A stretch of 41,738 nucleotides of DNA, taken from positions 1-41,738 of the forward strand of contig JACRIU010000109.1 of assembly GCA_016235775.1 (NCBI GenBank), written 5' to 3'. This stretch comes from Hydrogenophilales bacterium. GTDB taxonomy: Bacteria > Pseudomonadota > Gammaproteobacteria > Burkholderiales > Thiobacteraceae. This document shows, piece by piece, positions 2,646-23,008 of the stretch (positions within the stretch are counted from its first letter, which is position 1; the number at the start of each line of letters is the position of its first letter). Both the position numbers and the translations under genes were made by a program. The notes beneath the pieces were generated by a model. The model made no database searches. It was not told the origin of the DNA and saw only the letters and a program-made list of their open reading frames with translations.

Positions 2646-2715
2646 TCCGGCACCCCATTTTTTCTGGATTGTGGCACTTTCGCCTCGTGTATTTTCATGT
2701 CGTTCTCTTCCCCCA

Positions 2716-5640: not shown

Positions 5641-5662
5641 GATTCAGTCTTGAAGGTTGTTT

Positions 5663-6511: not shown

Positions 6512-6604
6512 CCCTTTTTTCTAACAACGGCAGTTACCGAGGAATCCTCGGTAACTGATGTCTCGTCAAATTCCTTGTCCGCGAAGATGTGCTTGAAGTA
6601 GGGT

Positions 6605-6646
6605 AGGTCGGGCTTTAGCCCGACATGTCGGGTTGAAACCCGACCT
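6605..6646. repeat. REP-like double hairpin between res and dinD
   Basis: Two adjacent perfect hairpins, GTCGGGCT-tt-AGCCCGAC and GTCGGGTT-ga-AACCCGAC, are enclosed by an outer arm pair AGGTCGGG/CCCGACCT. This is a typical dispersed intergenic palindromic element. It lies in the 147 bp spacer between res and dinD and could affect transcript stability; no T-run follows, so it is not a good terminator. Confidence 0.75.
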
Positions 6647-6658
6647 GCATTTAATGAA

Positions 6659-9600
6659 TTATTGAGGTTCATGAGCCAGCCCTTCGATCATCTTATTGAA
6701 CTCGGTTTCGACCTTGGCCTTGAAGTCGGCCTCGATCTGGTACACCTCGGTGAATTCGGCAAAGGCCCAGCGACCGTATTGCTTGAGGTGGTTCACGCCG
6801 GGCACCCAGTAGATGTCCATGGTGTTCTTCTTTTCCTTGGCGTCTTCGCGGCGGTAGCCCTTGATTTCGACGATGAGATGCAGCAAGTCGTCTTCGCCGT
6901 GGCCGTCATCAACCAGCACGATGAAGTCTGGAATGTATTTGCGCGTTTCGGAGCCATAACGATAGGGTACTTCCAGACCGAGGTTATGATTTTTGACGTA
7001 GGCTTTGACGCGCGGGTGCGACTCGGCCACACGGCAGAATTCACCCTCCCAGTCGCTGTCGAGGATCACCCAGTTGAGGTGGCAGCGGCGGGCATCGGTT
7101 TCCCAGCGGTCCATCTTGGAGGTGTTGAAGTTGACATGCGCTGTACTGCCCGCAGGGTTGTAGGGGTCGAGCACGGCTTTGATGGGACGTTTGCCGAGAT
7201 CAGATCGGGTGATGCCTGCCACGATTTTTTCACAGGCCATGTCAGCCAGCATCTTATATCTGAGTTGCGCTGGGTAGCTGCCGCCCTTGCACACCAGATA
7301 ACCTTCGATCCACTGACGTGTGATGCGCTTGAGTTGGCCGAACAGGTTGAGCTGAGGGTCGCCGTTAGCGTCACGGAATTTTGTTAGCAGTAGATGCGAG
7401 GTGAGTTCGTAGATGACTTGGGATGGGCGAACATCGCCGGTATGCACCAGATTCAAATCCACTGTTTCGCCAATGATGGCGGAATTAATGGTTACTGTTG
7501 CGCCCACCAGATCGGGGGTGAGTTCGAGCACGGAGTCGTCGTTGAATTCGGCAGTGAGGCGATCTTCCGGCAGCTCGGTGCGATAGCCTTGCACGCGCGG
7601 GAATGTGATCTCGCAGTCATCGCGGTCGGGGCGGATGGCTTTGACCTGGATGGTCTCGCGCGGTTTTTGTGGAGGCGCGACCACCGGCTTGGCGGTGAAA
7701 TCAAAAGGGATGCCCAGCACATCGGCGTATTCGACGTTAAACAGACCTTCTTCGTTGAGTTCGTAGGACTGGCGGCGCAGCGCACGGCCAATCACCTGCT
7801 CGCACAGCAACTGGGTGCCGAAGGCTCGCACACCGAGGACATGGGTGACGGTGTTGGCGTCCCAGCCCTCGGTGAGCATGGAAACGGACACAACACAGCG
7901 AATGGAATCGCCTAGTCGCCCTGCCTTGCCGACGGTGTTCATTACCTCGCGTAACAGCTCCTGATCGGTGATGTTCTCGGCCTGCTGCCGATCACCGGTG
8001 CGCTCGATGATCTCGCTGCGGAAGCGCTCGATCTCGTCAGACGCCATATTGCGGAAATTGTCGTCCAGCGCATCACCGGATTCGAGTTGCTCGCTGTCTA
8101 TCAGTAAGGTGCGCGGACGGCCCAGCGGGTTGCCATGTTCGTCGTGGTTGCGGAACAAGGCAAAACGTCCATCCACCAGTTTGCTGGAACCATCTTCATG
8201 CTGCTGCTGAAAACCGGAAATGTAGTCATACACCAGCTTGGATGCGGATGTGTTGTTGCAGACGACGATGAAGCAAGGCGGCACAGAGATTTTTTCTTTG
8301 GCCCAAAGCTCGAAGGTCTTTTCATAATGGCCATAGAGTGCTTCGAGCGCGGTCTGCAACTGGGTTGGCAGGTCGAGCGGGTTAAGCGTGTCGCCTTTGC
8401 CTCGCCCTTTCTTTGGCATCTTGGCGCGAATGTGTTCCCACAGATTGCGGAACATGGGCATTTCATTGCCGGGAATGTTGTCGGCCACTGGCACGCGCGG
8501 CAGCTTGACGATGCCGCACTCGATGGCATCCATCAGCGAAAAGTCGCTCATGGTCCAGGGAAACAATGTGCCTTCAACATAGCCGGAGCCACTCAGGAAA
8601 AAAGGTGTGGCGGAAAGATCGATGACGCGGGGCACACCCAGCTTGCGGTTGACGGCTTCGAGGCCGGAAATCCATAAGCGTGCCGCCTCGTTATTTTCTT
8701 GTGCTTCCTTTTTCTCGTCACCTTTCAGGTCTTCGTCATCGGTTTCTGCTTTCGGCTTCTCGCGGTAGCAGTGATGCGCTTCGTCATTGATGACCAGGAC
8801 GTTCTTCATGCCCATCAGTTCCGGCATGACGCGCTGGAGCATCTGGCCTTCAGTTTCGAGGGTGTCGAGTGGATCGCCGCCACGCCCTTGCAGCAGCAAT
8901 CGTCCACCTTTGGATAATTCCATCCGTTCACGCAGTTTGAATGCATGGTAGTTGGTGATGACGATTTTGGCGCGCTCCAGATCGCCCATCATGTCACTGG
9001 GTACCAGTTCGCGGCTTTTGAAATAACTATCTGGGTCGTTGGGTTGCAATACTCTCAAACGATCTTTGATGGTAAGTCCGGGCGCGACAATCAAAAAGCC
9101 GCGGGTGAATTTCTTACTGTTTGGATGACGCACGGCATTGATGGTCTGCCACGCAATCAGCATGGCCATGACGGTAGTCTTGCCCGCACCGGTAGCCAGT
9201 TTCAGCGCCAGCCGCATCAGTTCGGGGTTGGCATCGTTGTTGGCGTTGGTCAGATAATCCAGAAACCGTTCCGATGATTTGCCCAACTGGGGTGCGACTT
9301 CAGTCAGCCAGATAAGCGTTTCAACCGCCTCGACCTGACAGAAAAAGGGACGAACGCCGCTGAAATTGTGATGCCGCCAATGTTGCAACAGCCGCGCAGT
9401 TTCTGGCGAGACATGCCAAGTGTTGGGATTAGACAATGCACGCCACTTGCCCACTTCCTGGCGAACTGCATTGATGATGGCCGCCGTTTTTTGATATTCC
9501 TGCGCTTGGGTTGAAAGCCCCTTGTCATCGTCCAGCAACAGCGATGTTTGTTCGGCTTGGCCTTTCCGTTTCTTAGGCTTGGGAAGCGGGGTTATATATT

Positions 9601-9721
9601 CCGCAGGGCGGCGTTTCTCAATAATCTGCTGTGTGGGCTGCCCATGATCGAGCTCCCAATGCCGAGATGGGTGCTCGTAGGGGGAGTTGAGGATTGGTTT
9701 CTCGAAGAATTGATTATTCAT
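6659..9721 (-). CDS. res: Type III restriction endonuclease helicase-nuclease subunit (Res)
   Basis: About 1020 residues from the Met at 9721 (MNNQFFEKPIL), a start that matches the family N-terminus; the frame is also open to an ATG at 9799, but the added residues are low-complexity. Superfamily 2 helicase motifs are in order: Walker A LATGAGKTT near residue 175, DEAH box INDEAHHC near 310, motif III LSATPFF near 366, motif V/VI LTEGWDANTV and QVIGRALRR near 646. A C-terminal PD-(D/E)XK nuclease has PDFIVLVDD near 930 and EIKGY near 951. It would translocate or switch on DNA and cleave unmethylated sites with Mod. It is first in the presumed res-dinD-mod-OLD unit. Confidence 0.92.
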   Translation of the reverse strand: MNNQFFEKPILNSPYEHPSRHWELDHGQPTQQIIEKRRPAEYITPLPKPKKRKGQAEQTSLLLDDDKGLSTQAQEYQKTAAIINAVRQEVGKWRALSNPNTWHVSPETARLLQHWRHHNFSGVRPFFCQVEAVETLIWLTEVAPQLGKSSERFLDYLTNANNDANPELMRLALKLATGAGKTTVMAMLIAWQTINAVRHPNSKKFTRGFLIVAPGLTIKDRLRVLQPNDPDSYFKSRELVPSDMMGDLERAKIVITNYHAFKLRERMELSKGGRLLLQGRGGDPLDTLETEGQMLQRVMPELMGMKNVLVINDEAHHCYREKPKAETDDEDLKGDEKKEAQENNEAARLWISGLEAVNRKLGVPRVIDLSATPFFLSGSGYVEGTLFPWTMSDFSLMDAIECGIVKLPRVPVADNIPGNEMPMFRNLWEHIRAKMPKKGRGKGDTLNPLDLPTQLQTALEALYGHYEKTFELWAKEKISVPPCFIVVCNNTSASKLVYDYISGFQQQHEDGSSKLVDGRFALFRNHDEHGNPLGRPRTLLIDSEQLESGDALDDNFRNMASDEIERFRSEIIERTGDRQQAENITDQELLREVMNTVGKAGRLGDSIRCVVSVSMLTEGWDANTVTHVLGVRAFGTQLLCEQVIGRALRRQSYELNEEGLFNVEYADVLGIPFDFTAKPVVAPPQKPRETIQVKAIRPDRDDCEITFPRVQGYRTELPEDRLTAEFNDDSVLELTPDLVGATVTINSAIIGETVDLNLVHTGDVRPSQVIYELTSHLLLTKFRDANGDPQLNLFGQLKRITRQWIEGYLVCKGGSYPAQLRYKMLADMACEKIVAGITRSDLGKRPIKAVLDPYNPAGSTAHVNFNTSKMDRWETDARRCHLNWVILDSDWEGEFCRVAESHPRVKAYVKNHNLGLEVPYRYGSETRKYIPDFIVLVDDGHGEDDLLHLIVEIKGYRREDAKEKKNTMDIYWVPGVNHLKQYGRWAFAEFTEVYQIEADFKAKVETEFNKMIEGLAHEPQ

Positions 9722-9816
9722 TGATTTTCTTATTGATGAATCTACTACCCCCTTGGCATGCCCCTGCATCGGCATGGCTTGCTGCTGCATGCTTGGCATT
9801 ATGTTCCATACCCGCT

Positions 9817-9923: not shown

Positions 9924-11285
9924 TCACTCCGCCTCCAGCTCATACCGCTTGAGCTTGCGCCACAGCGAGACGCGGTCGATGCCGAGGATTTGCGCGGCCT
10001 GGGTCTGGTTGCCGCCGGCTTCTTCCAGCACCCAGCGGATGTAGTCTTTCTCCTGCTCTTCCAATGATGGAATGCGGCCGTCTTTTTTGCGGAAGGTGCG
10101 GATGGACAGGTCGCGCAAATCCTCGGGCAGGTGCGCGGCTTCGATCACCGCGCCGGTGCTGATGGCCACGCCGCGCTCGATGATGTTTTCCAGCTCGCGG
10201 ATATTGCCCGGAAACTCGTAAACCTTGAGCAGTTCCAGGGCGTCGGGCGCGATTTCCGTCACGTCTTTTTTCATCAGCGCGGCGTATTTTCTGAGGAAGT
10301 GGTAAGCCAAGAGCGGCACATCCTCTTTGCGTTGCGACAGCGGCGGGATGTGCAGGTTGACCACGTTCAACCGAAAATATAAATCCTGGCGGAAGCCGCC
10401 TTGGCGCATCATGTCCTGCACGTCGCGGTTGGTGGCGGCGATGAAGCGCACGTCCACTTTGATCGGCACGGTGCCGCCCAGGGGCAGCACTTCCCGCTCC
10501 TGTATCACGCGCAACAGCTTCACTTGCATGGCGGGCGACATCTCGGTGATTTCGTCCAGGAACAGGGTGCCGCCGGTCGCTGCTTCCAGCAGCCCTTTCT
10601 TGTCCGTGCCCGCGCCGGTGAAGGCGCCCTTGGTGTGGCCGAACAATTCGTTGGACAGCAACTCCTCGTTGAACGCGCCGCAGTTGACCGCCAGGAACGG
10701 CCCCTCGCTGCGTTCGCCGTGGGCGTGCAGATAGCGTGCGAATAATTCCTTGCCGGTGCCGGATTCGCCGGTGATCAGGATGTTGCAGCCGGTGGGCGCG
10801 ACCTGGCGCGCCATTTCCAGCAGGCGCTGCACCTTGATGTCCTGGGTGATGATTTTGACCTTGCCCTGAAAGCTTTCCACCTGCTCGCGCAGGCTGCGGT
10901 TCTCGCGCTTGAGATGGATTTTTTCCACCGCCTCGGCCACCACTTTCCGCACTTCGTCCAGGCGGAACGGCTTGGCGATGTAGTAAAACGCGCCGTGCTT
11001 CATCGCCTCCACCGCCGATTCCAGTGTGGCGTAGCCGGTGATCAGCACCACTTCCGTATCGGGACAGGCCTCGCGGCATTTGCGCAGAATCTGCATGCCG
11101 TCCACTTTCTCCATCCTGAGATCGGTGAGCACCACGTCGAAGGGCTGCTTCTCCAGAAAGGCCAGGGCATGCGCGCCGCTCTGGGTCGCGGTGACTTCAT
11201 AGCCTTCCTTCTTCATGACGTGTTCCAGATTCTTGAGGGCGACTTTTTCGTCGTCCACGATCAGCAGTTTTCCTTGGCTAGGCAT
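9924..11285 (-). CDS. Sigma-54-dependent response regulator, NtrC/AtoC family
   Basis: A 453-residue regulator. A receiver domain (residues 1-120) has the acidic pair DDE at 11-13 and phospho-acceptor D55 in VVLTDLRM. The central AAA+ domain carries Walker A GESGTGKE, the sigma-54 contact motif GAFTGA and Walker B GGTLFLDEI. A C-terminal Fis-type helix-turn-helix follows (GNQTQAAQILGIDRVSLWRKLKRY). The frame is open farther upstream, but the ATG at 11285 gives the canonical receiver N-terminus (KLLIVDDE) and overlaps the kinase stop by 8 bp, the usual arrangement for a cognate pair. It should activate an RpoN promoter; the best candidate is the one at 12967 in the divergent spacer before the SulP operon. 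Confidence 0.93.
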   Translation of the reverse strand: MPSQGKLLIVDDEKVALKNLEHVMKKEGYEVTATQSGAHALAFLEKQPFDVVLTDLRMEKVDGMQILRKCREACPDTEVVLITGYATLESAVEAMKHGAFYYIAKPFRLDEVRKVVAEAVEKIHLKRENRSLREQVESFQGKVKIITQDIKVQRLLEMARQVAPTGCNILITGESGTGKELFARYLHAHGERSEGPFLAVNCGAFNEELLSNELFGHTKGAFTGAGTDKKGLLEAATGGTLFLDEITEMSPAMQVKLLRVIQEREVLPLGGTVPIKVDVRFIAATNRDVQDMMRQGGFRQDLYFRLNVVNLHIPPLSQRKEDVPLLAYHFLRKYAALMKKDVTEIAPDALELLKVYEFPGNIRELENIIERGVAISTGAVIEAAHLPEDLRDLSIRTFRKKDGRIPSLEEQEKDYIRWVLEEAGGNQTQAAQILGIDRVSLWRKLKRYELEAE

Positions 11286-12792
11286 GATGTTCTCCCGCCG
11301 GCAGCGGCAGGCGAATGAAGAACGCCGTGCCCTGGCCCGGCTCGCTCTCCACCGCGATGCAGCCGCCGTGTTCTTCGATGATTTCAAAAACGATAAATAG
11401 TCCCAGTCCCGAGCCCTTGCCCACTTCGCGCGTGGTGAAGAAGGGATCGAAAATGCGCGGCAGAATCTCGGGCGGGATGCCCGCGCCGTTGTCCCGAATT
11501 TCGATATCCACCACTTCTCCATGGCCCTCGCAGCGGCCGAAGGCGAGGAAGTGCGCGCCCTTGCCGGAGGGTGCCGAATCGCCCGTTGCGCGCCCCCTGC
11601 GCGCGGTGATGCGGATTTCCCCCGCACCCTCCAGCGCTTCCACGGCGTTCTTGATCAGGTTGAGGAAAACCTGCTGCAAGCGCTGCTTGTCGCCATGCAG
11701 CAGCAGATCGGGCGGAATTTCGGTTGCGATCATCACGCGCGCCGGCACTTGGCCCTTGAGAAAGCGCAGGGTTTCCTCGAACAATTGTGCGAGATGCAAA
11801 GGCTCGGTCTTGAATTCGCGATCGCGGGCAAAATCGAGCAGGGAGCGCACGATGTTGCGCGCCCGGATGGTCTGCTCGTCGATCTGGCCCAGCAGCTCGC
11901 GCCGGAACGCCGGATCGGCCTGATCGCCCTCCTCCATCAATATCTGGCAGGAAGAGGAAATATTGGACAGGGGGTTGTTGAGCTCATGCGCCACGCCGGA
12001 GAGCAGCGTGCCCAGCGCGGCCAGCTTCTCGGCGCGCACCAGATGTGTCTGGCGCAACTCCAGTTCCTGCAGGACATGGTTGAAGGCGTGGGTCAGCGAG
12101 GCGATCTCGCGGTCGTCGCTCTCCCGCTCAAGCTGCGTCAGGCGGCCCTGGGCCACCGCCTCCATATTGTCCTCCAGGCTTTTCAGCGGCCGCGCCACGC
12201 GCCGCGACAAGAGCTGGCCGATGACGACCACCGCCAGCACCAGCACCGCGATCGAGATCACCAGCACGCGCCGGTGCCGGTCGAGAGAGGATTGCAGGGA
12301 AGTGCGCTCGGTGCGGGCGATTTCCTCGGCCAGCGTGACGATCTCTTTGCCGGCCTTGCGGATGCGCATTTCCAGCGCCTCGGTGCGCGCCGTGCCCGCG
12401 TCGCCCAAGCTCTCGTATTCACCCATCAGGACGGTATATTGCGCCAACTCGTCTTGCAGAACGGCGATCCGCGCAGCGCTGGCGATGGCGTCGAACACGC
12501 CGTGATTCTCCCGCAGCAGCGCCTGCGCCTGAAGCACATAACGCCGAGTCTCGCTCATATCCGCCGCCTGCCGGTACAGAAAATAATTCTTCTCGAAGCG
12601 GCGAATCTCCAGCGTGGCGTCGAAGAATTCGGAAATCCGCCCGCCGGCCAGAATCTTGTTCTCGATCAGCCGCAACTCCACAAAGGCAAACAGGGAAAGG
12701 CCGACGATCAGGGTGCCGACGGCGTAATAGCCGAAGGTGATTTTTTGGCGCAGGGAATTCATGGGGCACCAGAATAATTTAAATAATTGCAT
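11278..12792 (-). CDS. Membrane sensor histidine kinase
   Basis: 504 residues from the ATG at 12792; the next Met (12762, MNSLRQKITF) is an equally good start. Membrane segments at about 19-39 and 176-196 flank a helical periplasmic sensor domain of about 135 residues, rich in charged coiled-coil positions and without a recognised ligand motif. A HAMP linker follows, then a HisKA domain with H269 in GVAHELNNPLSN, an N box (NLIKNAVEAL), and G boxes DNGAGIPPE and GKGSGLGLF. It overlaps the response regulator gene and should phosphorylate that protein. The signal is unknown; the neighbouring transporter suggests an anion or envelope cue. Confidence 0.92.
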   Translation of the reverse strand: MQLFKLFWCPMNSLRQKITFGYYAVGTLIVGLSLFAFVELRLIENKILAGGRISEFFDATLEIRRFEKNYFLYRQAADMSETRRYVLQAQALLRENHGVFDAIASAARIAVLQDELAQYTVLMGEYESLGDAGTARTEALEMRIRKAGKEIVTLAEEIARTERTSLQSSLDRHRRVLVISIAVLVLAVVVIGQLLSRRVARPLKSLEDNMEAVAQGRLTQLERESDDREIASLTHAFNHVLQELELRQTHLVRAEKLAALGTLLSGVAHELNNPLSNISSSCQILMEEGDQADPAFRRELLGQIDEQTIRARNIVRSLLDFARDREFKTEPLHLAQLFEETLRFLKGQVPARVMIATEIPPDLLLHGDKQRLQQVFLNLIKNAVEALEGAGEIRITARRGRATGDSAPSGKGAHFLAFGRCEGHGEVVDIEIRDNGAGIPPEILPRIFDPFFTTREVGKGSGLGLFIVFEIIEEHGGCIAVESEPGQGTAFFIRLPLPAGEHHA

Positions 12793-12996: not shown

Positions 12997-13380
12997 ATGA
13001 CCCGCCAGGAACCGGAAAAAAAAGTGCTGCTTGCCGTGCGCGAAAACTGCATCGACCAGCGCCTGCTCACCTCCGCGCTCAATCTGTGCAAAAGAATGGA
13101 TGCGGGCCTGGAGATTTTAGCTATCGTCAAGGGTGAAACACTGCCTCAGCCCTTGCAGGTGCTGTTGGAGGCGTTGCGCGAGGAAGGGCTATATTTCAAC
13201 TTGACGCGGAAACCGGATTTGCGGCGCCGCGACATCGTGGATTACGCCAACACGCACGAGTGCATTTCCGCCGTGGTGATCGATTCCCTCGAGGGCTGGG
13301 AAACCCTGGCCCAGGACCGAAGCAGCGACCCCTGGAAAAAACTGGAATGCCCCTTGGTTACCGCCACACCCCGCAAATGA
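12997..13380 (+). CDS. Small universal-stress-like cytoplasmic protein
   Basis: A 127-residue soluble protein. The start KKVLLAVRENCID followed by a helix and LEILAIVKG resembles the first beta-alpha-beta unit of the universal stress protein fold, and the C-terminal part has the strand AVVIDSLEGWE; the glycine-rich nucleotide loop of ATP-binding Usp proteins is not seen. It precedes the SulP gene by 12 bp on the same strand and likely shares its sigma-54 promoter. The ATG at 12997 lies almost at the predicted transcript start and has no Shine-Dalgarno, so translation may be leaderless or begin at the GTG at 13024, which has GGAA 6 nt upstream. The family assignment is moderate. Confidence 0.65.
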   Translation: MTRQEPEKKVLLAVRENCIDQRLLTSALNLCKRMDAGLEILAIVKGETLPQPLQVLLEALREEGLYFNLTRKPDLRRRDIVDYANTHECISAVVIDSLEGWETLAQDRSSDPWKKLECPLVTATPRK

Positions 13381-13392
13381 AATTGGACAAAC

Positions 13393-15564
13393 ATGCCCAG
13401 CGAAATCGCCGAAAAACTTTCAACGACCCGAGTCAACCTCATGTCACCCGCTAAATTCCTGCCCTTCCTGAAATGGTTTCCGATCCGCGGCGACGCGATC
13501 CGCGCCGATCTGCTCGCCGGCATCACGGTCGCGCTGGTGCTGATTCCGCAATCCATGGCCTATGCGCAACTGGCGGGGCTGCCCGCCTATTACGGCCTGT
13601 ATGCGGCCTTCCTGCCCGGCATCATCGCCGCCTTGTGGGGTTCGTCCGCGCAGTTGGCCACCGGGCCGGTGGCCGTGGCCTCGCTCTTGACCGCCTCAGC
13701 ACTCGCGCCCCTGGCCGCGACCGGCTCCGAAGCTTTCGTCGCGCTCGCCATTTTGTTGGCGCTGCTGGTGGGCATCGTGCAATTGACGCTGGGCGTATTC
13801 AAGCTCGGCGTGGTGGTGAATTTCCTCTCGCACCCGGTGATTGTCGGCTTCACCAATGCCGCCGCCATCATCATCGGCCTGTCGCAGCTCAACAAGATTT
13901 TCGGCGTCTCCATGGGGCGCAGCGAACATTTCATCAATGACATCTGGGGCGTGCTGCTGCAAATCGGCGAAACCCATGTGCCGACCCTGCTCATGGGCGT
14001 CTCCGCTTTCGCCATCATGTGGGGGCTGAAGAAATATGCGCCCAAGCTGCCCGGCGTACTGATCGCCGTGACGCTGACCACGGTCGTGAGTTATTCGATC
14101 GGCTTCGAGCGCAACAGCGTGGGCCGGGTCGAGCAGATCATGGACAGCGAAGTCCGCACCCTCGCCGGCGATTTTTCGGGCACCGAGCAAAAAATCGGCG
14201 AGATCAATCAGCAGATCAGCGCCAAATCGGCTGCGATCAAAACCCAGGAAAAAGCCGAAAAAGAAACCAACCAGCACCTTGCCGCGCTGCATTATGAAGT
14301 CGAGTTGCTGCGCCTGAGTTTGACCGATCTGGAAGCGGAAAACCGCAAGCGCAACCGGGCGTTGCGCAAATTCATCCTCGAACGCGTGCCCGGCGCCGCG
14401 GGGGAATCCGACCGCCTGTATCTCCAAGGGCAGACGCCGCGCGATTTGAAATCCGATGGCCATCGCTGGCGCATCAAGAAGATCGGCCAGGGCGAAATCA
14501 AGCTGGTCGGCGGCGGCGAAGTGGTGGGCGGCATTCCCTCCGGCTTGCCCAGCCTCGAAGTCCCCAAGATCAGTTGGGATCTGATCGGCGCCCTGCTCTC
14601 CAGCGCCCTGGTGATTTCGTTGGTGGGCTTCATGGAAGCAATCTCCATCGCCAAGGCCATGGCCGCAAAAACCAAGCAGCGCATCGATCCGAATCAAGAG
14701 TTGCTTGGCCAGGGCATCGCCAATATCGTGGGCAGCCTGTCGCAATCCTTCCCGGTGTCCGGCTCGTTCTCGCGCTCGGCGGTGAACTTGAATGCCGGCG
14801 CCAAGACGGGGCTATCCTCGGTGTTCACCGGCCTGATCGTGCTGGTGACGCTGCTGTTTTTGACGCCGCTGCTGTATCACCTGCCGCAAGCGGTGCTGGC
14901 GGCGGTGATCATGATGGCGGTGATCGGCCTGATCAATTTCAAGGCGATCAAGCATGCCTGGCATGCGCACAAGCATGACGGCATCGCCGCCGTCGTGACC
15001 TTCGTCGCGACGCTGGCGTTCGCGCCGCATTTGGACAACGGCATCATGGTGGGCGCCGGGCTGGCGATCATTCTCTATCTGTTGCGCACCATGACGCCGC
15101 GCGTCGCCATTCTCGGTCGCCACGCCGACGGCACGCTGCGCGACGTAAAAGTGCATAATCTGCCTACCAGCGAGCATGTGGTGGCGATCCGCTTCGACGG
15201 TTCGCTCTACTTCGCCAACGTCGCCTACTTCGAAGACGCGATTCTGGAAGCGGCGGCGGACAACCCCAAGGCCAGGTACATTCTGGTGGTGGGCGACGGC
15301 ATCAACCAGCTCGACGCGTCGGGCGAGGAAGTCATTCATCACCTGGTGGAACGGCTGCGCGACAACGGCGTGACGCTGCTGTTCAGCGGCCTCAAAAAAC
15401 AAGTGCTGGACGTCATGGAGCACACCGGTCTGCGCCAGTTGATCGGCGAGGAAAACATCTTCGCCACGGAAGACATGGCGCTGGATGTGGTGTATCGCCA
15501 GGTGTGTGAAATCGATGGCAATACCGAGTTTTGCCTGCTGCGCCCGGCAAGCGGCGCGGCCTGA
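13393..15564 (+). CDS. SulP-family anion transporter with coiled-coil insertion and STAS domain
   Basis: A 723-residue inner-membrane SulP/SLC26 transporter. The signature IPQSMAYAQLAGLPAYYGLYAAFLP-like region (51-75), the QLATGPVAV motif (87-95) and the later VGFMEAISIAKAMA and SFPVSGSFSRSAVN segments are all present, followed by a C-terminal STAS domain (about 575-700). Unusually, about 135 residues are inserted at 240-376, between two membrane segments: a charged, heptad-like helical stretch (EQKIGEINQQISAKSAAIKT and onward) then a short basic segment. Substrates of the family are sulfate, bicarbonate or other anions; the sequence does not decide. The gene follows a small stress-type gene under a sigma-54 promoter. 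A second possible start is at 13441. Confidence 0.9.
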   Translation: MPSEIAEKLSTTRVNLMSPAKFLPFLKWFPIRGDAIRADLLAGITVALVLIPQSMAYAQLAGLPAYYGLYAAFLPGIIAALWGSSAQLATGPVAVASLLTASALAPLAATGSEAFVALAILLALLVGIVQLTLGVFKLGVVVNFLSHPVIVGFTNAAAIIIGLSQLNKIFGVSMGRSEHFINDIWGVLLQIGETHVPTLLMGVSAFAIMWGLKKYAPKLPGVLIAVTLTTVVSYSIGFERNSVGRVEQIMDSEVRTLAGDFSGTEQKIGEINQQISAKSAAIKTQEKAEKETNQHLAALHYEVELLRLSLTDLEAENRKRNRALRKFILERVPGAAGESDRLYLQGQTPRDLKSDGHRWRIKKIGQGEIKLVGGGEVVGGIPSGLPSLEVPKISWDLIGALLSSALVISLVGFMEAISIAKAMAAKTKQRIDPNQELLGQGIANIVGSLSQSFPVSGSFSRSAVNLNAGAKTGLSSVFTGLIVLVTLLFLTPLLYHLPQAVLAAVIMMAVIGLINFKAIKHAWHAHKHDGIAAVVTFVATLAFAPHLDNGIMVGAGLAIILYLLRTMTPRVAILGRHADGTLRDVKVHNLPTSEHVVAIRFDGSLYFANVAYFEDAILEAAADNPKARYILVVGDGINQLDASGEEVIHHLVERLRDNGVTLLFSGLKKQVLDVMEHTGLRQLIGEENIFATEDMALDVVYRQVCEIDGNTEFCLLRPASGAA

Positions 15565-15841: not shown

Positions 15842-17866
15842 GTGGAAACCCTGTTGTCCTTGCTTCCTATCGATATCGCGGGCGGAGTCGTCGTGTACTG
15901 GCTGGTGCTGGGCATGCTCTCCCTGCTGCTAAGTGCTTCTCCCAAGCTGATCTCACAAATTATCTTCCCGGCGGGCGCGCTCGGCGCGCTGGTGCTGGCG
16001 GGCGCCGGCTTGGCGGCGCTCGGCCAGGCGCCGAATGTCGCGGTGCTCCCGCTCGGCCTGCCCGATCTGCCCTTCCACATGCGCATCGACGCGTTGTCGG
16101 CGTTTTTCCTTCTGCTGCTGGGCGCTGCCGGTTTTGCGATTTCGGTGTATGGCGCGGGCTATTTCCGGCACATGGAAGCTCGCGCGCTGGCGCTGCTGGC
16201 GCTGGAATACCATGTGTTCCTGGCGAGCATGGCGCTGGTGTTGATGGCCGACGACGCGTATTTGTTCATGGTGGCGTGGGAGTCGATGGCGCTCTACTCC
16301 TATTTCCTGGTCACCACCGATCACAAGGTGCCGGAGATTCGCAAAGCGGGTTATCTCTATCTGCTGATTGCGCATGTGGGCGCCATCAGTATTCTCTTGG
16401 CCTTCGGCGTGATGCAAGGCGGCCATGGCATTGCGGCGTACACCTTCGACGCCATGCGCGCCGCGCATCTGACGCCGTTCTGGGCTTCGATCACATTCTC
16501 GCTCGCGCTATTCGGTTTCGGCGCCAAGGCCGGTCTGCTGCCGGTGCATGTATGGCTGCCGGAAGCGCATCCGGCCGCGCCCTCGCCGGTGTCGGCGATG
16601 ATGAGCGGCATCATGTTGAAGACCGCGATCTATGGCTTATTGCGCATCACCTTCGATTTTCTGGGCGGGGAAATTTGGTGGTGGGGCGTGCTCGCGCTGA
16701 CGCTGGGGCTGATCACCGCTTTGTTCGGCGTGATGTTCGCCGCCGTGCAGACCGATATGAAGCGCCTCTTGGCTTATTCCTCGATCGAGAACATCGGCAT
16801 TCTACTGGTCGGCATCGGGCTCGCCATCCTGTTCCACGCCAATGGCAAACAAGCGCTCGCCGCTTTGGCCCTGACCGCCACGCTGTATCACGCCATTAAC
16901 CACGCCTTCTTCAAGAGCCTGTTGTTTCTCGGCACGGGGGCCGTGCTGCACACCACGGGCGAACGCAACTTGGGCCGGCTCGGCGGATTGATCCGGCGCA
17001 TGCCGTGGGTCGCGACCCTGGTCTTGGTGGGCACCCTGGCCATTGCGGGCCTGCCGCCGCTGAATGGTTTCGTCTCGGAATGGCTGCTGTTGCAAGCCTT
17101 CCTGCTCACGCCCGATTTGCCGCAGCCTTATCTGAATATGTTGATCCCGGTGGCAACCGCCGCCATCGCGCTCGCCGCCGCCCTGGCCGCGTATGTGATG
17201 GTGAAGTTCTACGGCATCGTGTTCCTGGGCCAGCCGCGCGATGAAAAGCTCAAGGATGCGCACGACGCCGGCCGGTGGGAGCGTCTGGGGCTGGCCTGGC
17301 TCGCGCTCGGTTGTGTCTTGCTGGGTCTCTTCCCGGTGCAAGTCATCCTGCAATTGGATCATGTGACGCAGGCGCTGATCGGCGACTCCCTCGGCATGAC
17401 CGCCGCCAAAACCGGCTGGCTCTTCCTGACCCCGATCGCGCCGGAACGCGCGAGCTACAGCCCACTCATCTTCCTGCTGGCGATTCTGGTGGTGCTCGCC
17501 ATCACCTTCCTCGCGGTGCGCCGCTTCTATCATGGCCGCCTGCGCCGCGGCCCGGCCTGGGACTGCGGTTTTCCGGAACAAACGCCGCGCATGCAGGATA
17601 CGGCGGAGGGTTTCGGCCAGCCGATCCGGCAAATTTTCGAACCGTTCTTTTTGATCGAGCGTGAAGTGCCCAGCCCCTTCGACCGCGCGCCGCGCTATCA
17701 CGGCCGCAGCGAGGACAAGCTGTGGTACGGACTCTATCTGCCGATCGCGAAAGCGGCGGACAAACTCTCTGGCTGGATTTCCATCCTGCAGCATGGACGG
17801 ATTCATCTGTACCTGATGTACAGCTTCGTCACGCTGCTACTGATGTTGGTATTGGTGAGATGGTAA
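15842..17866 (+). CDS. hyfB: Ehr/hydrogenase-4-like proton-pumping subunit HyfB (NuoL-like)
   Basis: 674 residues, GTG start. A polytopic inner-membrane antiporter-like subunit of the Mrp/NuoL family, as in HyfB/HycC. The core motif GLLPVHVWLPEAHPAAPSPV and the following SAMMSGIMLKTAIYGLLRI segment carry the conserved His, Glu and Lys of the proton path, and an IENIGI segment follows at about 318. It begins a tight operon hyfB-C-E-F-G-I; its stop codon overlaps the hyfC ATG by one base. As the catalytic subunit of this operon lacks Ni ligands, HyfB here serves a proton-translocating complex of unknown substrate. Confidence 0.9.
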   Translation: METLLSLLPIDIAGGVVVYWLVLGMLSLLLSASPKLISQIIFPAGALGALVLAGAGLAALGQAPNVAVLPLGLPDLPFHMRIDALSAFFLLLLGAAGFAISVYGAGYFRHMEARALALLALEYHVFLASMALVLMADDAYLFMVAWESMALYSYFLVTTDHKVPEIRKAGYLYLLIAHVGAISILLAFGVMQGGHGIAAYTFDAMRAAHLTPFWASITFSLALFGFGAKAGLLPVHVWLPEAHPAAPSPVSAMMSGIMLKTAIYGLLRITFDFLGGEIWWWGVLALTLGLITALFGVMFAAVQTDMKRLLAYSSIENIGILLVGIGLAILFHANGKQALAALALTATLYHAINHAFFKSLLFLGTGAVLHTTGERNLGRLGGLIRRMPWVATLVLVGTLAIAGLPPLNGFVSEWLLLQAFLLTPDLPQPYLNMLIPVATAAIALAAALAAYVMVKFYGIVFLGQPRDEKLKDAHDAGRWERLGLAWLALGCVLLGLFPVQVILQLDHVTQALIGDSLGMTAAKTGWLFLTPIAPERASYSPLIFLLAILVVLAITFLAVRRFYHGRLRRGPAWDCGFPEQTPRMQDTAEGFGQPIRQIFEPFFLIEREVPSPFDRAPRYHGRSEDKLWYGLYLPIAKAADKLSGWISILQHGRIHLYLMYSFVTLLLMLVLVRW

Positions 17867-18819
17867 TGAGCGCGCAACTTTCCGGCATTCTGTTTCAGTT
17901 ATTCCAGTCGCTGCTGGTGGTGGCGATCGCGCCGCTGCTGCTGGGCTGGGTCAATCAATGCCGCGCCTGGCTGCAAAACCGCACCGGCGCCGGCGTGCTG
18001 CAACCCTATCGCACCTTGCGCAAACTGTTCCACAAAGATGCGGTGATTGCGCACAACGCCTCGCCCCTATTCCGGGTGACGCCGTACATTCTGTTCGCCT
18101 GCATGTGGCTGGCGGCGGGCGTGGTGCCGGTGCTGGCGACCGATCTGCCTTTTTCACCGGCGGCTGACGTGATCGCACTGGTCGGTATTTTCGCCTTGGC
18201 GCGCGTGTTTATTGCGCTCGCGGCGATGGATATCGGTACTTCCTTCGGCACCCTCGGCGCACGGCGCGAAATGCTGGTGGCGTTTCTGGCGGAACCGGCG
18301 TTGCTGATGGTGTTTTTTACCGCTTCGCTGATTAGTCATTCCACGCAATTACCCACCATCGTCGAAGCCCTGGCGCATCAACAATTTTCGCTTTACCCCA
18401 GCATGGCGTTCGCCGCGGTGGCGTTCGTGATGATATTGCTCGCGGAAAATGCGCGCATCCCGGTGGACAATCCGACTACCCATCTCGAACTCACCATGAT
18501 CCACGAGGCGATGATCCTCGAATACTCCGCGCGCCACCTGGCGCTGATCGAATGGGCGAGCAGCATCAAGCTGCTGGCCTATACCACCATCGGTTTCGCG
18601 CTGTTTGTTCCCTATGGCATTGCCGAGGCGGGCAATTGGACCGCATTGCCGCTGGCCCTGGTGGCGCTCGGCGTGAAGCTGGCGGCGGCCGGCGCCGGCC
18701 TCGCCCTGCTGGAGACGATTTCGGCCAAGATGCGCATCTTCCGTGCGCCGGAATTCCTGGGCACCGCTTTCCTGCTCGCGGTGCTGGGCATGCTCATTCA
18801 TTTCCTGTTGGGAGCCTGA
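17866..18819 (+). CDS. hyfC: Ehr/hydrogenase-4-like membrane subunit HyfC (NuoH-like)
   Basis: 317 residues from the ATG at 17866, which overlaps the hyfB stop (taATG); the frame is open farther upstream but inside hyfB. A polytopic protein of the NuoH/HycD/HyfC family that anchors the soluble arm to the membrane. Seen motifs: the basic first loop GAGVLQPYRTLRKLFHK, the central DIGTSFGTLGARREM and the conserved acidic loop ENARIPVDNPTTHLELTMIHEAMILEYS (about residues 196-223). It is followed after 1 bp by hyfE. Confidence 0.92.
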   Translation: MSAQLSGILFQLFQSLLVVAIAPLLLGWVNQCRAWLQNRTGAGVLQPYRTLRKLFHKDAVIAHNASPLFRVTPYILFACMWLAAGVVPVLATDLPFSPAADVIALVGIFALARVFIALAAMDIGTSFGTLGARREMLVAFLAEPALLMVFFTASLISHSTQLPTIVEALAHQQFSLYPSMAFAAVAFVMILLAENARIPVDNPTTHLELTMIHEAMILEYSARHLALIEWASSIKLLAYTTIGFALFVPYGIAEAGNWTALPLALVALGVKLAAAGAGLALLETISAKMRIFRAPEFLGTAFLLAVLGMLIHFLLGA

Positions 18820-18820
18820 G

Positions 18821-19483
18821 ATGTCGGTTTCCTTGAGCGGACAATTGATCAACCTGCTGGCGGCGTTGCTGCTCTTGATCGCATTCGGCATGCTCTCCCA
18901 GCGGCGCGTGCTGTCTTTAATCAATTTATTTACGTGGCAAGGCTTCATTTTGTCGATCAGCACGCTGGTGGTCGCCATGAGCACGCAGCAGCAGCACCTG
19001 TATTACTCGGCCGCGCTGACCCTGGTGTTGAAAGTCATCATCCTTCCTTGGATTCTGCATCGCCTGATCCGCAAGCTGAACGTGAAATGGGATGTGGAGA
19101 CGCTCATCAACATTCCCACCACCATGCTGGCCGGCATCGCACTGGTGATTTTCGCCTTCAATCTGGCGCTGCCGATTACGCAGCTTGCCGGCACCATCAC
19201 GCGCAGCACGCTGGGCATCGCCATCGCCATCGTGCTGCTGTCCTTCCTGATGATGCTGACGCGGCGCAAGGCGATTCCGCAAGTGATCGGTTTTCTGGCC
19301 ATGGAAAACGGTTTATTTTTCGCCGCGACCAGCGCCACCTACGGCATGCCGCTGGTGGTGGAACTCGGTATCGCATTGGACGTGCTGGTGGGGGTGTTCA
19401 TTCTCGGCATCTTCTTCTTCCAGATCCGCGAGGCCTTCGACAGCCTCGATCTGAAGCACATGGAAAAACTCAAGGACGAATGA
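18821..19483 (+). CDS. hyfE: Hydrogenase-4 component E-like subunit HyfE
   Basis: 220 residues starting at the ATG directly after the hyfC stop. An integral membrane protein with six to seven predicted hydrophobic segments; the C-terminal half (RKAIPQVIGFLAMENGLFF, then a segment ending VFILGIFFFQIREAF) has the NuoK-like glutamate in a membrane helix, as known for HyfE. It would form part of the membrane arm. The next gene begins 2 bp later with GTG. Confidence 0.9.
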   Translation: MSVSLSGQLINLLAALLLLIAFGMLSQRRVLSLINLFTWQGFILSISTLVVAMSTQQQHLYYSAALTLVLKVIILPWILHRLIRKLNVKWDVETLINIPTTMLAGIALVIFAFNLALPITQLAGTITRSTLGIAIAIVLLSFLMMLTRRKAIPQVIGFLAMENGLFFAATSATYGMPLVVELGIALDVLVGVFILGIFFFQIREAFDSLDLKHMEKLKDE

Positions 19484-19484
19484 A

Positions 19485-20936
19485 GTGGAAATTCTCTGGC
19501 TACTAGGCATTCCCCTATTTGGCGGGATTTTTCTCGCAGCGACGGGCTGCCGCCGTTTCGCGCCCGAGGTGAATTCGGTATTCAGCTTCGCCACCTTCAT
19601 CGCAGCTGCGGTGTTGACGAATCGCATTATCAACGACGGCCCGATCACGGCCTTCAATGAACAGTTCTTTATCGATTCGTTCAATGTGTTCCTGGTGGCG
19701 TTGACCGCCTTCGTCGGCTTCACCACCTCGCTCTTCTCGCGCCCTTATATGCGCATCGAGCAGCATCACGGCAAGCTCACCATCAATATGCAGCGGCTGT
19801 ATCACAGCATGTATCAACTGTTCACCTTCACCATGCTGCTGGCGTTGACCACAAACAACATGGGCATCTTGTGGGTGGCGATGGAAGCGGCGACCTTGAC
19901 CACCGTACTGCTGGTCAGCTTGTATCGCACTCCGGCTAGCCTGGAAGCGGCGTGGAAATATTTCATCTTGTGCGGCGTGGGCATCGCACAAGCACTGTTC
20001 GGCACCATCCTGCTCTACTTCGCGGCGGAGAGGGTGTTGGGGCCGGGCGGAAATTCGCTTTTGTGGACACACTTGAATGCGGTGAAAACACAACTGGAGC
20101 CGACCGTACTGTCGCTGGCCTTCGTGTTTTTGCTGGTGGGCTACGGCACCAAGGTCGGCTTGGCGCCGCTGCACAACTGGTTACCGGACGCGCATGCCGA
20201 AGGCCCGACGCCGGTCTCGGCGGTGCTCTCCGGCCTACTATTGAACGTGGCGCTGTACGCCGTGGTGCGCAGCAAGGTGTTGGCCGATGGCGCGCTCGGT
20301 ACAGATTTCGCCGGTAATCTGATGATGGGCTTCGGCCTGCTGTCGGTGGTGGTGGCGGCATTTTTCCTGTCGCGGCAAAAAGACGTGAAACGCATGTTCG
20401 CCTACTCCTCGATCGAGCACATGGGCTTGGTGACCTTCGCCTTCGGCATGGGCGGGGCGGTGGCCACCTTCGCCGGCTTGCTGCACATGACCGTGCATTC
20501 ACTGACGAAATCCGCGATCTTTTTTGCCGTCGGCCATGCCACACAAACCACCGGCACCCAGCTCATGGAAAATATTCGCGGCTTGATCAAGCAAAGCCCC
20601 ACTGTCGGTTGGGGGCTGATGCTGGGCACGCTGGCGATTTTGGGCATGCCGCCGTTCGGCGTGTTCGCCAGCGAATTTTTAATTCTCACCACCGCCATGC
20701 ATAGCCATCCGTGGGCGACCCCGATTTTATTGTTGGCGCTGGGCGTGGCCTTCGCGTCGATTTTTGCCAAGGTGCAGCCGATGGTATTCGGCGAAACCGA
20801 TTTACCGCGCCTGCCGCACCCGCCGGCATTGGTGCCGGTGTTTGTGTATCTGGCGCTAGTATTGCTGCTGGGGCTGTTCATTCCGCCCTACCTTGCCGGC
20901 TGGTATCAGCAGGCTGCGGCGCTGCTTGGGAAATAG
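19485..20936 (+). CDS. hyfF: Ehr/hydrogenase-4-like proton-pumping subunit HyfF (NuoN/L-like)
   Basis: 483 residues, GTG start 2 bp after hyfE. A second antiporter-like subunit: the signature GLAPLHNWLPDAHAEGPTPV with following LSGLLLNVALYAVVR is at about residues 225-261, and SSIEHMGLVTFAFGMGG follows. Two different antiporter-like subunits (HyfB and HyfF) are the hallmark of hydrogenase-4-type complexes. An interesting variation is Asn in place of the more common Lys in the LSGLLLNVALY helix compared with HyfB (SGIMLKTAIYG). Confidence 0.9.
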   Translation: MEILWLLGIPLFGGIFLAATGCRRFAPEVNSVFSFATFIAAAVLTNRIINDGPITAFNEQFFIDSFNVFLVALTAFVGFTTSLFSRPYMRIEQHHGKLTINMQRLYHSMYQLFTFTMLLALTTNNMGILWVAMEAATLTTVLLVSLYRTPASLEAAWKYFILCGVGIAQALFGTILLYFAAERVLGPGGNSLLWTHLNAVKTQLEPTVLSLAFVFLLVGYGTKVGLAPLHNWLPDAHAEGPTPVSAVLSGLLLNVALYAVVRSKVLADGALGTDFAGNLMMGFGLLSVVVAAFFLSRQKDVKRMFAYSSIEHMGLVTFAFGMGGAVATFAGLLHMTVHSLTKSAIFFAVGHATQTTGTQLMENIRGLIKQSPTVGWGLMLGTLAILGMPPFGVFASEFLILTTAMHSHPWATPILLLALGVAFASIFAKVQPMVFGETDLPRLPHPPALVPVFVYLALVLLLGLFIPPYLAGWYQQAAALLGK

Positions 20937-20945
20937 GCCAGAATC

Positions 20946-22493
20946 ATGCAACTCGAAGACCTGAATATTGAAACGCAAGCACTGCCCGGCGCAATCCCCG
21001 CCTGGCGCGCGCAGATCGCCGCCGACCGTCTGCAGCAGGTGTGCGCGCAAGTACGCGAGAGCGGCGGACGCTTGCTCGCCCTGTGGGGCAGCGACGAGCG
21101 TGCAAACGGAAAAGGTTTTGCGCTACACGTCGCGCTTGCTACCCATCCCGGTTTGTTGGTGCTGAACTTAACGCTCGACGCGAACCAGCCTGCTTATCCG
21201 GACATCGGCGCGATCTTTCCGCAGGCCGAGCGCATGCAGCGCGCCACCTATGACATGCTGGGCCTCGTCGCACAAGACGCGGTGGATCAGCGCAAATGGA
21301 TGCGTCATGGTTGTTGGCCCGAGGGTCAGTTTCCGCTGCGCCGCGAATTCGACTTCACGCAGAAAATGACTGCTGGGCTCGACACCTACCCTTTCATTCC
21401 CGTGGTCGGTGACGGCGTACATGAAATCCCTGTCGGTCCGGTACATGCGGGCACCATCGAACCCGGTCACTTCCGTTTTTCGATCGTGGGTGAACGCGTG
21501 CTGCGCTTAGAAGAGCGGCTCGGCTACAAACACAAAGGTATCGAAAAATTGGCCGAGACCATGGGGCTACTGCAAGGCGCCAAGCTCGCCGGCCGCGTCT
21601 CGGGTGACTCCACTTGCGCTTACGCCTGGGCCTACGCCATGGCGCTGGAGAGCATGACCGGCGTTACGCCACCGCCGCGTGCTTTGCTGCTACGCGCCCT
21701 GCTGTTGGAGCGCGAGCGCATTCACAATCATCTAGGCGACTTGGGTTATCTCGGCAACGATGTGGCGCTGTCCTTCGGCTTCGCGCAGTTCTGGATTTTG
21801 AAAGAGGACGTGCTGCGCGCCAATGGCGAATTATTCGGCCACCGTTATCTGATGGATCGCATTATCCCCGGCGGTGTAGCCTGCGATCTGCCCCCGCAAG
21901 GCAAAGCACGCTTGCTGGCGGAAGCAGAACACTTGGAGCAGGAAATAGGCACGCTACGCGCCATCTACGAAGAGCACGCCGGCGTGCAGGACCGCTTCCT
22001 CACCACTGGCCGCGTCTCGCCCGACCGCGCGGCCAAGCTGGGGCTGACCGGACTACCCGGCCGCGCCAGCGGCCAAGCCTGGGATCTGCGCGCGCAATAT
22101 CCCTGCGCGCCTTACCACGAATTGGATGTGCGCATGGCCACCCATCGCAACGGTGACGTGGCGGCACGCTCGATTGTGCGCATCGAAGAAATCTTGGAAT
22201 CGCTGCGCCTGACGCGGCTGATTTTGGACAAGCTGACCGATGGCCCGTTCAGCGTCGCTGTGCCGCAAGCACCGGCTGGCAGTTACGGTATTGGCATGGT
22301 GGAAGGCTGGCGCGGCGAAGTGTTGATTGGATTGCAAGCAGGCGCAGACAATCGCATTGCGCGCATGCACCCACATGATCCTTCCTGGCAAAACTGGCCC
22401 GTGCTGGAACACGCGGTGATCGGCAATATCGTGCCCGATTTCCCACTGATCAATAAATCGTTCAACTTGAGCTATACCGGACAGGACTTGTAG
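20946..22493 (+). CDS. hyfG: Ehr large subunit, HyfG-like, lacking the Ni-binding cysteines
   Basis: 515 residues: a NuoC-like N-terminal domain (about 1-115) fused to a NuoD/hydrogenase large-subunit domain (about 145-515), as in HyfG/HycE. Family blocks are clear: VGPVHAGTIEPGHFRF, ERLGYKHKGIEKLAE, and RERIHNHLGDLG. The first Ni-site motif, normally RxCGxC, reads RVSGDSTC at 217-224, so both ligand positions are Ser. The second, normally DPCxxC near the C-terminus, reads KSFNLSY at 504-510, again without Cys, and the protein ends five residues later with no cleavable tail. It therefore cannot hold a NiFe centre. This identifies an energy-converting-hydrogenase-related (Ehr) complex. Confidence 0.9.
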   Translation: MQLEDLNIETQALPGAIPAWRAQIAADRLQQVCAQVRESGGRLLALWGSDERANGKGFALHVALATHPGLLVLNLTLDANQPAYPDIGAIFPQAERMQRATYDMLGLVAQDAVDQRKWMRHGCWPEGQFPLRREFDFTQKMTAGLDTYPFIPVVGDGVHEIPVGPVHAGTIEPGHFRFSIVGERVLRLEERLGYKHKGIEKLAETMGLLQGAKLAGRVSGDSTCAYAWAYAMALESMTGVTPPPRALLLRALLLERERIHNHLGDLGYLGNDVALSFGFAQFWILKEDVLRANGELFGHRYLMDRIIPGGVACDLPPQGKARLLAEAEHLEQEIGTLRAIYEEHAGVQDRFLTTGRVSPDRAAKLGLTGLPGRASGQAWDLRAQYPCAPYHELDVRMATHRNGDVAARSIVRIEEILESLRLTRLILDKLTDGPFSVAVPQAPAGSYGIGMVEGWRGEVLIGLQAGADNRIARMHPHDPSWQNWPVLEHAVIGNIVPDFPLINKSFNLSYTGQDL

Positions 22494-22495
22494 CC

Positions 22496-23008
22496 ATGTA
22501 CCAAATCCTGAAACAGATTCTGAAAACCGGCATCAAGACCGAGCCGCATCCTGTTGCCGATGACGCACTCCGAACTGAAGCGCAAAGCCTGCAAGCGGAA
22601 ATCTTGCGCGTGTTTGGCCAAGCACTCTCCATCCGCCATGTGGATGCCGGGTCGTGCAACGGCTGCGAATTGGAAATCCACGCACTGAACAATCCCTACT
22701 ACAACATCGAAGGTCTGGGCATCAAATTCACCGCCAGCCCGCGCCACGCCGACATGCTGTTGGTGACTGGCCCGGTGGCAAAGCACATGGAAGTCGCGCT
22801 CAAGCGCACTTTTGACGCCATGCCCGAACCCAAATTCGTGGTCGCCATCGGCGATTGCGGCTGTACCGGCGGCATTTTCGGCGAAAGCTATGCCAGCTGC
22901 GGCCGCGTGTCGAACGTCATTCCGGTGGATGCCGCGGTGCCCGGCTGCCCGCCGACCCCCATCGCCATCATGCAAGGCATCCTGGCCGCGATCAGCGCCG
23001 GTAAATAA
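22496..23008 (+). CDS. hyfI: Ehr small subunit, HyfI-like (NuoB-like, [4Fe-4S])
   Basis: 170 residues of the NuoB/HycG/HyfI family, starting 2 bp after hyfG. The N2-type cluster ligands are all present: CNGCELE (about residues 60-66), GDCGCTGGIFG (about 118-128) and PGCPPTP (about 150-156). Thus the complex keeps its proximal FeS cluster although the partner HyfG has lost the NiFe site. No HyfA or HyfH-type ferredoxin subunit is encoded in the operon, so the electron partner is not evident. It is the last gene of the operon. Confidence 0.92.
   Translation: MYQILKQILKTGIKTEPHPVADDALRTEAQSLQAEILRVFGQALSIRHVDAGSCNGCELEIHALNNPYYNIEGLGIKFTASPRHADMLLVTGPVAKHMEVALKRTFDAMPEPKFVVAIGDCGCTGGIFGESYASCGRVSNVIPVDAAVPGCPPTPIAIMQGILAAISAGK

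What the first reader, a model, noticed from the sequence alone, without database searches (positions are those of the whole stretch)
14110..14521. About 135-residue coiled-coil insertion inside a SulP transporter
Between two membrane segments of the transport domain (residues about 240-376) lies a charged heptad-like helix followed by a basic segment. The usual SulP has only a short loop here. Flanking SulP motifs and the STAS domain are intact, so it is a real insertion and not a fusion. It might mediate oligomerisation, sensing or docking to another protein.
Basis: seen in the sequence. Interest (0 to 1): 0.68.

Follow-up and report, generated by a model that had tools for sequence, protein, structure and literature searches.

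The report
Structured periplasmic domain inside SulP transporter
A bacterial anion transporter of the SulP/SLC26 family carries an extra 135-residue domain, predicted to fold as a helical hairpin on a small beta base, spliced into the outer-face loop that joins the two halves of the transporter; many sulfur- and iron-oxidising and other Pseudomonadota have it, no database searched describes it, and what it does is untested.

Summary
The insertion is real. SulP gene 13393-15564 (723 aa) has residues 239-373 (14107-14511) where other SulPs have about 7 residues. Across 195 relatives the loop is either 4-19 or 130-141 residues long, apart from one wrong-frame artefact. AlphaFold2 folds the segment alone at pLDDT 93: one strand, an antiparallel helical hairpin, then four strands. 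So it is a small domain, not just a coiled coil plus a basic stretch. It lies between TM7 and TM8, the junction of the two 7-TM inverted repeats. The TM7-8 loop of human SLC26A11 is glycosylated, so the domain should be periplasmic. No Pfam or NCBIfam model covers it and no PDB match is convincing. It occurs in 50/300 genomes of the order, about 32/369 of the class and 17/398 of the phylum, always in SulP-sized genes. It is under purifying selection (dN/dS 0.08-0.29; core 0.04-0.11). Gammaproteobacterial relatives about 70% identical lack it and nest inside the insert clade, so probably lost it. Conservation peaks in the beta base (P349, D355, W359-R360-I361) and is lowest at the hairpin tip. 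I favour an action on the transporter's own gate-core movement over docking by the tip; this step is inferred.

The parts
13393..15564 (+). SulP/SLC26 transporter gene, 723 aa, with STAS domain
   Evidence: PF00916 E 5.7e-109 and STAS E 1.2e-15; TIGR00815 over cut-off
13489..14100 (+). First inverted repeat, TM1-TM7 (residues 33-236)
   Evidence: AlphaFold2 helices; alignment to AtSULTR4;1 and prestin
14107..14511 (+). The inserted domain (residues 239-373)
   Evidence: bimodal loop length in 195 SulPs; stand-alone AlphaFold2 model pLDDT 93.2
14107..14127 (+). Insert strand 1 (residues 239-245)
14146..14253 (+). Insert helix 1 of the hairpin (residues 252-287)
14269..14367 (+). Insert helix 2 of the hairpin (residues 293-325)
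14374..14514 (+). Insert strands 2-5 (residues 328-374), the most conserved and basic part, ending in the GGG before the usual SulP VVGxIPxGLP motif
14467..14475 (+). W359-R360-I361, among the most conserved residues of the insert, on strand 4
14575..15093 (+). Second inverted repeat, TM8-TM14 (residues 395-567)
15160..15477 (+). STAS domain (residues 590-695)
12997..13380 (+). 127-aa gene 12 bases upstream, probably co-transcribed; no Pfam or NCBIfam match, universal-stress-protein-like by eye
11278..12792 (-). Divergent sensor histidine kinase (HAMP, HisKA, HATPase)
   Evidence: such genes near 17 of 68 insert SulPs
9924..11285 (-). NtrC-type response regulator following the kinase
   Evidence: by sequence; conserved neighbour cluster
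15842..23008 (+). Hydrogenase-4/complex-I-like six-gene membrane complex directly downstream
   Evidence: such genes near 17 of 68 insert SulPs

Best explanation
A SulP/SLC26 anion transporter in which the usually short periplasmic TM7-TM8 tether between the two inverted repeats is replaced by a folded domain: a helical hairpin several nanometres long on a small beta base. Shown by sequence or prediction: the insertion, its exact site, its fold, its homology across Pseudomonadota, purifying selection, and greatest conservation in the membrane-proximal beta base. By homology: the site is periplasmic and joins the gate (scaffold) domain, which includes TM7, to the core (transport) domain, which includes TM8. 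Inferred: the base packs over the outer face of its own transporter and constrains or gates the elevator movement, and perhaps anion entry through its basic strands. Inferred more weakly: the hairpin is a lever or a contact arm to the other subunit. Substrate is inferred only from neighbours: bicarbonate and/or sulfate in sulfur- and iron-oxidising bacteria.
For: Loop length 4-19 or 130-141, nothing between apart from one wrong-frame artefact. Stand-alone model pLDDT 93.2, pTM 0.82; same elements in the full-length model. The insert falls between prestin residues 308 and 314, at the junction of the 7+7 repeat; gate = TM5-7, 12-14 and core = TM1-4, 9-11 in PMC6656431, with TM8 counted as core in PMC8755724. 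[quoted passage not shown] In UraA the TM7-8 loop is a long unstructured tether joining the repeats, and interdomain linkers control the conformational cycle (PMC11362169). Conservation: beta base 0.52-0.54, hairpin tip loop 0.18. dN/dS 0.08-0.29 in ten close pairs. Only 1 of 109 inserts has a cysteine. Neighbours: DabA, gamma-carbonic-anhydrase-like, Hyf-like, SoeABC-like, SoxYZ.
Against: Close relatives without the domain (about 70% core identity, probable loss) presumably transport well, so it is not essential for transport. The full-length model has lower confidence in the insert's later part (pLDDT 68-77), and its placement relative to the membrane domain could not be inspected. Selection on the insert is 2-3 times weaker than on the core. 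No transport or topology data exist here.
Confidence: 0.45

Rival explanations
1. Oligomerisation or docking arm: the hairpin tip reaches the second subunit or a periplasmic or neighbouring membrane protein, as the alpha-hairpins of membrane fusion proteins do.
For: Foldseek's best hits, though not significant, are AcrA/MexA-type adaptors with an alpha-hairpin on a split beta domain (best E 0.043). SLC26 proteins are dimers with a small membrane interface (PMC6497670).
Against: The tip is the least conserved part (0.18), whereas a shared docking tip should be conserved. The AcrA alignments have about 17 A rmsd. No neighbour gene is common to all insert loci: Hyf 17, Soe 15, DabA 10, HK/RR 17 of 68.
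Confidence: 0.25
2. Docking site for the divergently encoded sensor kinase, making the transporter a co-sensor, as DauA works with DctA in E. coli.
For: Kinase or NtrC-type regulator genes lie near 17 of 68 insert SulPs and near 2 of 18 insert-less ones. A DauA signalling precedent exists (abstract of PMC5703999).
Against: Most insert SulPs (51 of 68) have no such gene nearby, and the difference is not corrected for relatedness.
Confidence: 0.1
3. Structural passenger: an old, tolerated insertion of a stable domain with no important function.
For: Probable clean loss in a gammaproteobacterial clade; weaker constraint than the core; hairpin sequence very variable.
Against: Retained at near-constant length in sequences down to 21% insert identity; dN/dS well below 1; conserved W359, R360, P349, D355.
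Confidence: 0.15
4. A substrate-handling domain: the basic strands bind bicarbonate or sulfate, or hold a periplasmic carbonic anhydrase, near the pore mouth.
For: Basic C-terminal strands with conserved R360; carbonic-anhydrase-like and DabA genes nearby in some loci.
Against: No pocket or ligand evidence; the gamma-CA-like gene neighbours only 9 of 68.
Confidence: 0.05

Closest known systems
Human SLC26A11 (PMC13408680)
   Same: Same family and the same site: an extension with a beta-hairpin in the extracytosolic TM7-8 loop. It also has a TM8 glutamate; the window protein has invariant E415 in TM8, aligned with a glutamate of AtSULTR4;1.
   Different: SLC26A11's extension is a short glycosylated, mobile beta-hairpin without a helical hairpin; the window's is 135 residues and predicted to be well folded.
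Bacterial SulP transporters SLC26Dg and cyanobacterial BicA
   Same: 14-TM fold of the same family; VIA-align Z about 48 to each.
   Different: They have only a short TM7-8 loop where the window protein has the domain.
UraA (SLC23) interdomain linkers (PMC11362169)
   Same: Same 7+7 fold; the TM7-8 loop joins the inverted repeats and the two moving domains.
   Different: There the TM7-8 loop is described as an unstructured tether.
Membrane fusion proteins AcrA/MexA
   Same: An alpha-hairpin emerging from a split beta domain in the periplasm.
   Different: No significant structural or sequence match (best Foldseek E 0.043, rmsd about 17 A); one strand before the hairpin instead of half a lipoyl domain; variable tip.
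SulP-carbonic anhydrase fusions (Felce and Saier 2004, cited in PMC6458275)
   Same: SulP with an added domain and a link to bicarbonate.
   Different: There the extra domain is an enzyme fused to the transporter, not a domain of unknown function between the repeats.

Membership tests
SulP/SLC26 transporter | Sulfate_transp membrane domain with 7+7 TM fold | tested here: met
   PF00916 E 5.7e-109; TIGR00815 438 bits over cut-off 380; Z 54 to AtSULTR4;1
SulP/SLC26 transporter | C-terminal STAS domain | tested here: met
   PF01740 at residues 590-695, E 1.2e-15
SulP/SLC26 transporter | Anion transport activity and substrate | not testable with these tools
   No assay; neighbours suggest bicarbonate and/or sulfate
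BicA bicarbonate transporter (NF050096) | Curated NCBIfam equivalog score | tested here: not met
   144 bits against cut-off 880; it may still carry bicarbonate
DauA (NF008660) | Curated NCBIfam equivalog score | tested here: not met
   217 bits against cut-off 614
Any described Pfam or NCBIfam domain, for the insert | Score over the curated cut-off | tested here: not met
   The window insert passes no cut-off; the best hits of 89 inserts are generic coiled coils such as ATG16 (24 against 33.7 bits)
Membrane fusion protein (AcrA/HlyD) alpha-hairpin | Fold match | tested here: inconclusive
   Best Foldseek E 0.043 with rmsd 16.9 A; VIA-align list filled by generic helical hairpins, Z 10-12
Canonical coiled coil | Clear heptad periodicity | tested here: inconclusive
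   Helix 1 family average p = 0.01, helix 2 p = 0.24; the model gives two antiparallel helices

The most novel reading that the evidence does not exclude
The domain is a periplasmic regulatory module built into the hinge between the two repeats of an elevator transporter, so that an external signal or a partner bound to the hairpin directly controls gate-core movement. That would be a kind of control not described for SulP/SLC26, whose known regulatory domain (STAS) is cytoplasmic.
Probability: 0.25. Interest if true: 0.62.

Novelty: new variant of a known kind. Interest (0 to 1): 0.42.

Why it matters
SLC26/SulP proteins include human disease transporters, prestin and bacterial bicarbonate importers. 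All rely on movement between a core and a gate domain, and the TM7-8 linker joining them on the outer face is usually short or loose. A natural subfamily with a folded domain there, together with close relatives that lack it at about 70% identity, gives a ready-made comparison for testing how the linker affects transport. It may also help decide which SulPs of carbon-fixing, sulfur- and iron-oxidising bacteria carry bicarbonate and which export sulfate.

Tried and rejected
Fusion, frameshift or assembly artefact: rejected; one open frame, homologous inserts in many independent genomes, dN/dS below 1. Extra membrane helices: rejected by hydropathy. Insert common to most SulPs: rejected. Known domain family: none in Pfam or NCBIfam; the ATG16, SMC and sigma-1 hits (PDB profile search, best E 0.00087, helices only) are coiled-coil noise. 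Link only to the Hyf-like operon: rejected, other contexts are equally common. Marker of autotrophy only: rejected; RuBisCO is enriched (33 of 50 against 104 of 250 genomes, Fisher p 0.0018, not corrected for relatedness) but 17 insert genomes lack it, and a Legionella adelaidensis plasmid SulP has the insert. Single gain without loss: disfavoured by the tree but not excluded (p-AU 0.123). Literature searches in the held open-access library found no description of this insert; this is a limited library. Phyla other than Pseudomonadota were not tested. The AcrA-like architecture was considered and not adopted as membership.

Full report
What is there. The gene at 13393-15564 (+) encodes a 723-residue SulP/SLC26 transporter with an intact membrane domain and a C-terminal STAS domain. 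The Pfam and NCBIfam models match it in two pieces, and alignments to solved relatives stop at residue 214 (AtSULTR4;1) or 237 (prestin) and resume at 377 or 374. Residues 239-373 (14107-14511) are therefore extra.

Is it more than chance. In 195 SulP proteins collected from 150 loci, the loop between the alignment columns of residues 236 and 376 is either 4-19 residues or 130-141 residues long. One odd value of 80-90 is a wrong-frame ORF. The same genome holds a second SulP, 57% identical, with a homologous insert, and a third without it. In ten pairs of close homologues the insert has dN/dS 0.08-0.29 against 0.04-0.11 for the transport core, so it is under purifying selection, though about 2-3 times weaker.

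What it looks like. AlphaFold2 with an alignment of 89 inserts folds the segment alone with mean pLDDT 93.2 and pTM 0.82: strand, helix of about 37 residues, tight turn, helix of about 32 residues, then four strands. The full-length model (mean pLDDT 81) shows the same elements between TM7 and TM8. The segment is hydrophilic and has no cysteine; only 1 of 109 inserts has one. Heptad periodicity is weak by hydropathy alone, so 'coiled coil' is a fair but loose description. Model coordinates are not given by the tools, so the domain's orientation to the membrane part was not inspected.

Where it lies. SLC26 membrane domains are two inverted 7-TM repeats, arranged as a core (TM1-4, 9-11 in PMC6656431; TM8 is also counted with the core in PMC8755724) and a gate (TM5-7, 12-14). 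The insert sits exactly at the junction of the repeats. That loop is on the outer face: in human SLC26A11 it carries a glycosylated beta-hairpin extension (PMC13408680). With N- and C-termini in the cytoplasm and seven preceding membrane segments, the window's domain should be periplasmic, and the charges of the other loops agree. In UraA, a relative with the same fold, the TM7-8 loop is described as a long, flexible tether, and linkers between the two domains control the transport cycle (PMC11362169).

Who has it. A search with the insert alone finds it in 50 of 300 genomes of the order. In the class it is 35 of 369, of which 3 are weak hits in proteins that are not SulP-sized. In the phylum it is 19 of 398, of which 2 are such weak hits. 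All the loci read back are SulP genes except one broken copy that was not analysed. It also occurs in a Legionella adelaidensis plasmid SulP, WP_058462458.1. On a tree of the core with insert columns left out, the insert needs three changes among 51 representatives. The closest insert-less proteins, about 70% identical and from gammaproteobacteria such as Thiomargarita and other mostly unclassified lineages, nest inside the insert clade with good support. One ancient gain and later loss is therefore the simplest reading, although the alternative is not rejected (p-AU 0.123). Phyla outside Pseudomonadota were not tested.

What surrounds it. Of 68 insert SulPs with readable neighbourhoods, 17 lie near a hydrogenase-4-like complex as in this window, 15 near SoeABC-like genes, 10 near DabA (inorganic carbon uptake), 9 near a gamma-carbonic-anhydrase-like gene, 9 near SoxYZ-like genes and 17 near a sensor kinase or NtrC-type regulator. 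Many are in tandem with a short SulP. This points to bicarbonate and/or sulfate as substrates in sulfur- and iron-oxidising bacteria. No context is shared by all, so no partner can be named. RuBisCO is commoner in insert genomes, but not universal.

How it may work. The most conserved residues (W359, R360, I361, P349, D355, L371, G373-G375) are in the beta base next to TM8, while the hairpin tip is the least conserved. That pattern suggests that the base works close to its own transporter, constraining or gating the movement of core against gate, and that the tip has no common partner. The long hairpin might add subunit contacts. These functional steps are inferred; none was tested.

Comparison with the known. 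It is a SulP by every sequence test made. It is not BicA or DauA by NCBI's curated scores. The insert matches no Pfam or NCBIfam family, and its PDB profile hits are coiled-coil helices only. The nearest architecture is the alpha-hairpin on a split beta domain of membrane fusion proteins, at E 0.043 with poor superposition. The nearest precedent in the family is the small TM7-8 beta-hairpin of SLC26A11. I therefore call it a new variant of a known kind.

Score. The domain is widespread, well folded by prediction and undescribed as far as I could search, and it sits at a mechanistically telling place with natural deletions for comparison. It remains an accessory domain of a known transporter with an untested function, hence 0.42.

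Noticed in passing
15842-23008 (+): Hydrogenase-4/complex-I-like cluster directly after the SulP gene. By eye the large subunit (20946-22493) lacks the usual nickel-binding cysteine pairs (GRVSGDSTCAYAW; no C-terminal CxxC), so it is probably an energy-converting-hydrogenase-related complex and not a hydrogenase.
   Followed up: partly
L002 (own genome, contig C90): The paralogous insert SulP lies beside a gamma-carbonic-anhydrase/CcmM-like gene, a pairing seen at 9 of 68 insert SulPs.
   Followed up: partly
12997-13380 (+): 127-aa gene 12 bases upstream of the SulP, with no Pfam or NCBIfam match; it looks like a small universal-stress-protein-like fold. Some insert-less relatives also have a universal-stress-like gene upstream.
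   Followed up: partly
L038, L039, L044-L046, L048, L056, L057, L069: Tandem pairs of a short SulP and an insert SulP next to SoeABC-like genes, some also near ATP sulfurylase, SoxY or flavocytochrome c: possible sulfate export linked to sulfite oxidation.
   Followed up: partly
L081, L077, L084: Two different insert SulPs encoded next to each other, one with a shorter insert of 131 residues in each locus.
   Followed up: no
window residue E415 (14635-14637): Invariant TM8 glutamate in the insert family, aligned with a glutamate of the plant sulfate transporter AtSULTR4;1; it hints at proton-coupled transport.
   Followed up: no
897-9799 (-): AAA-ATPase-like gene followed by genes that look like a restriction-modification system.
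   Followed up: no
39936-41294 (-): Looks like a nitrogenase cofactor scaffold gene (NifN-like), next to other possible nif genes.
   Followed up: no
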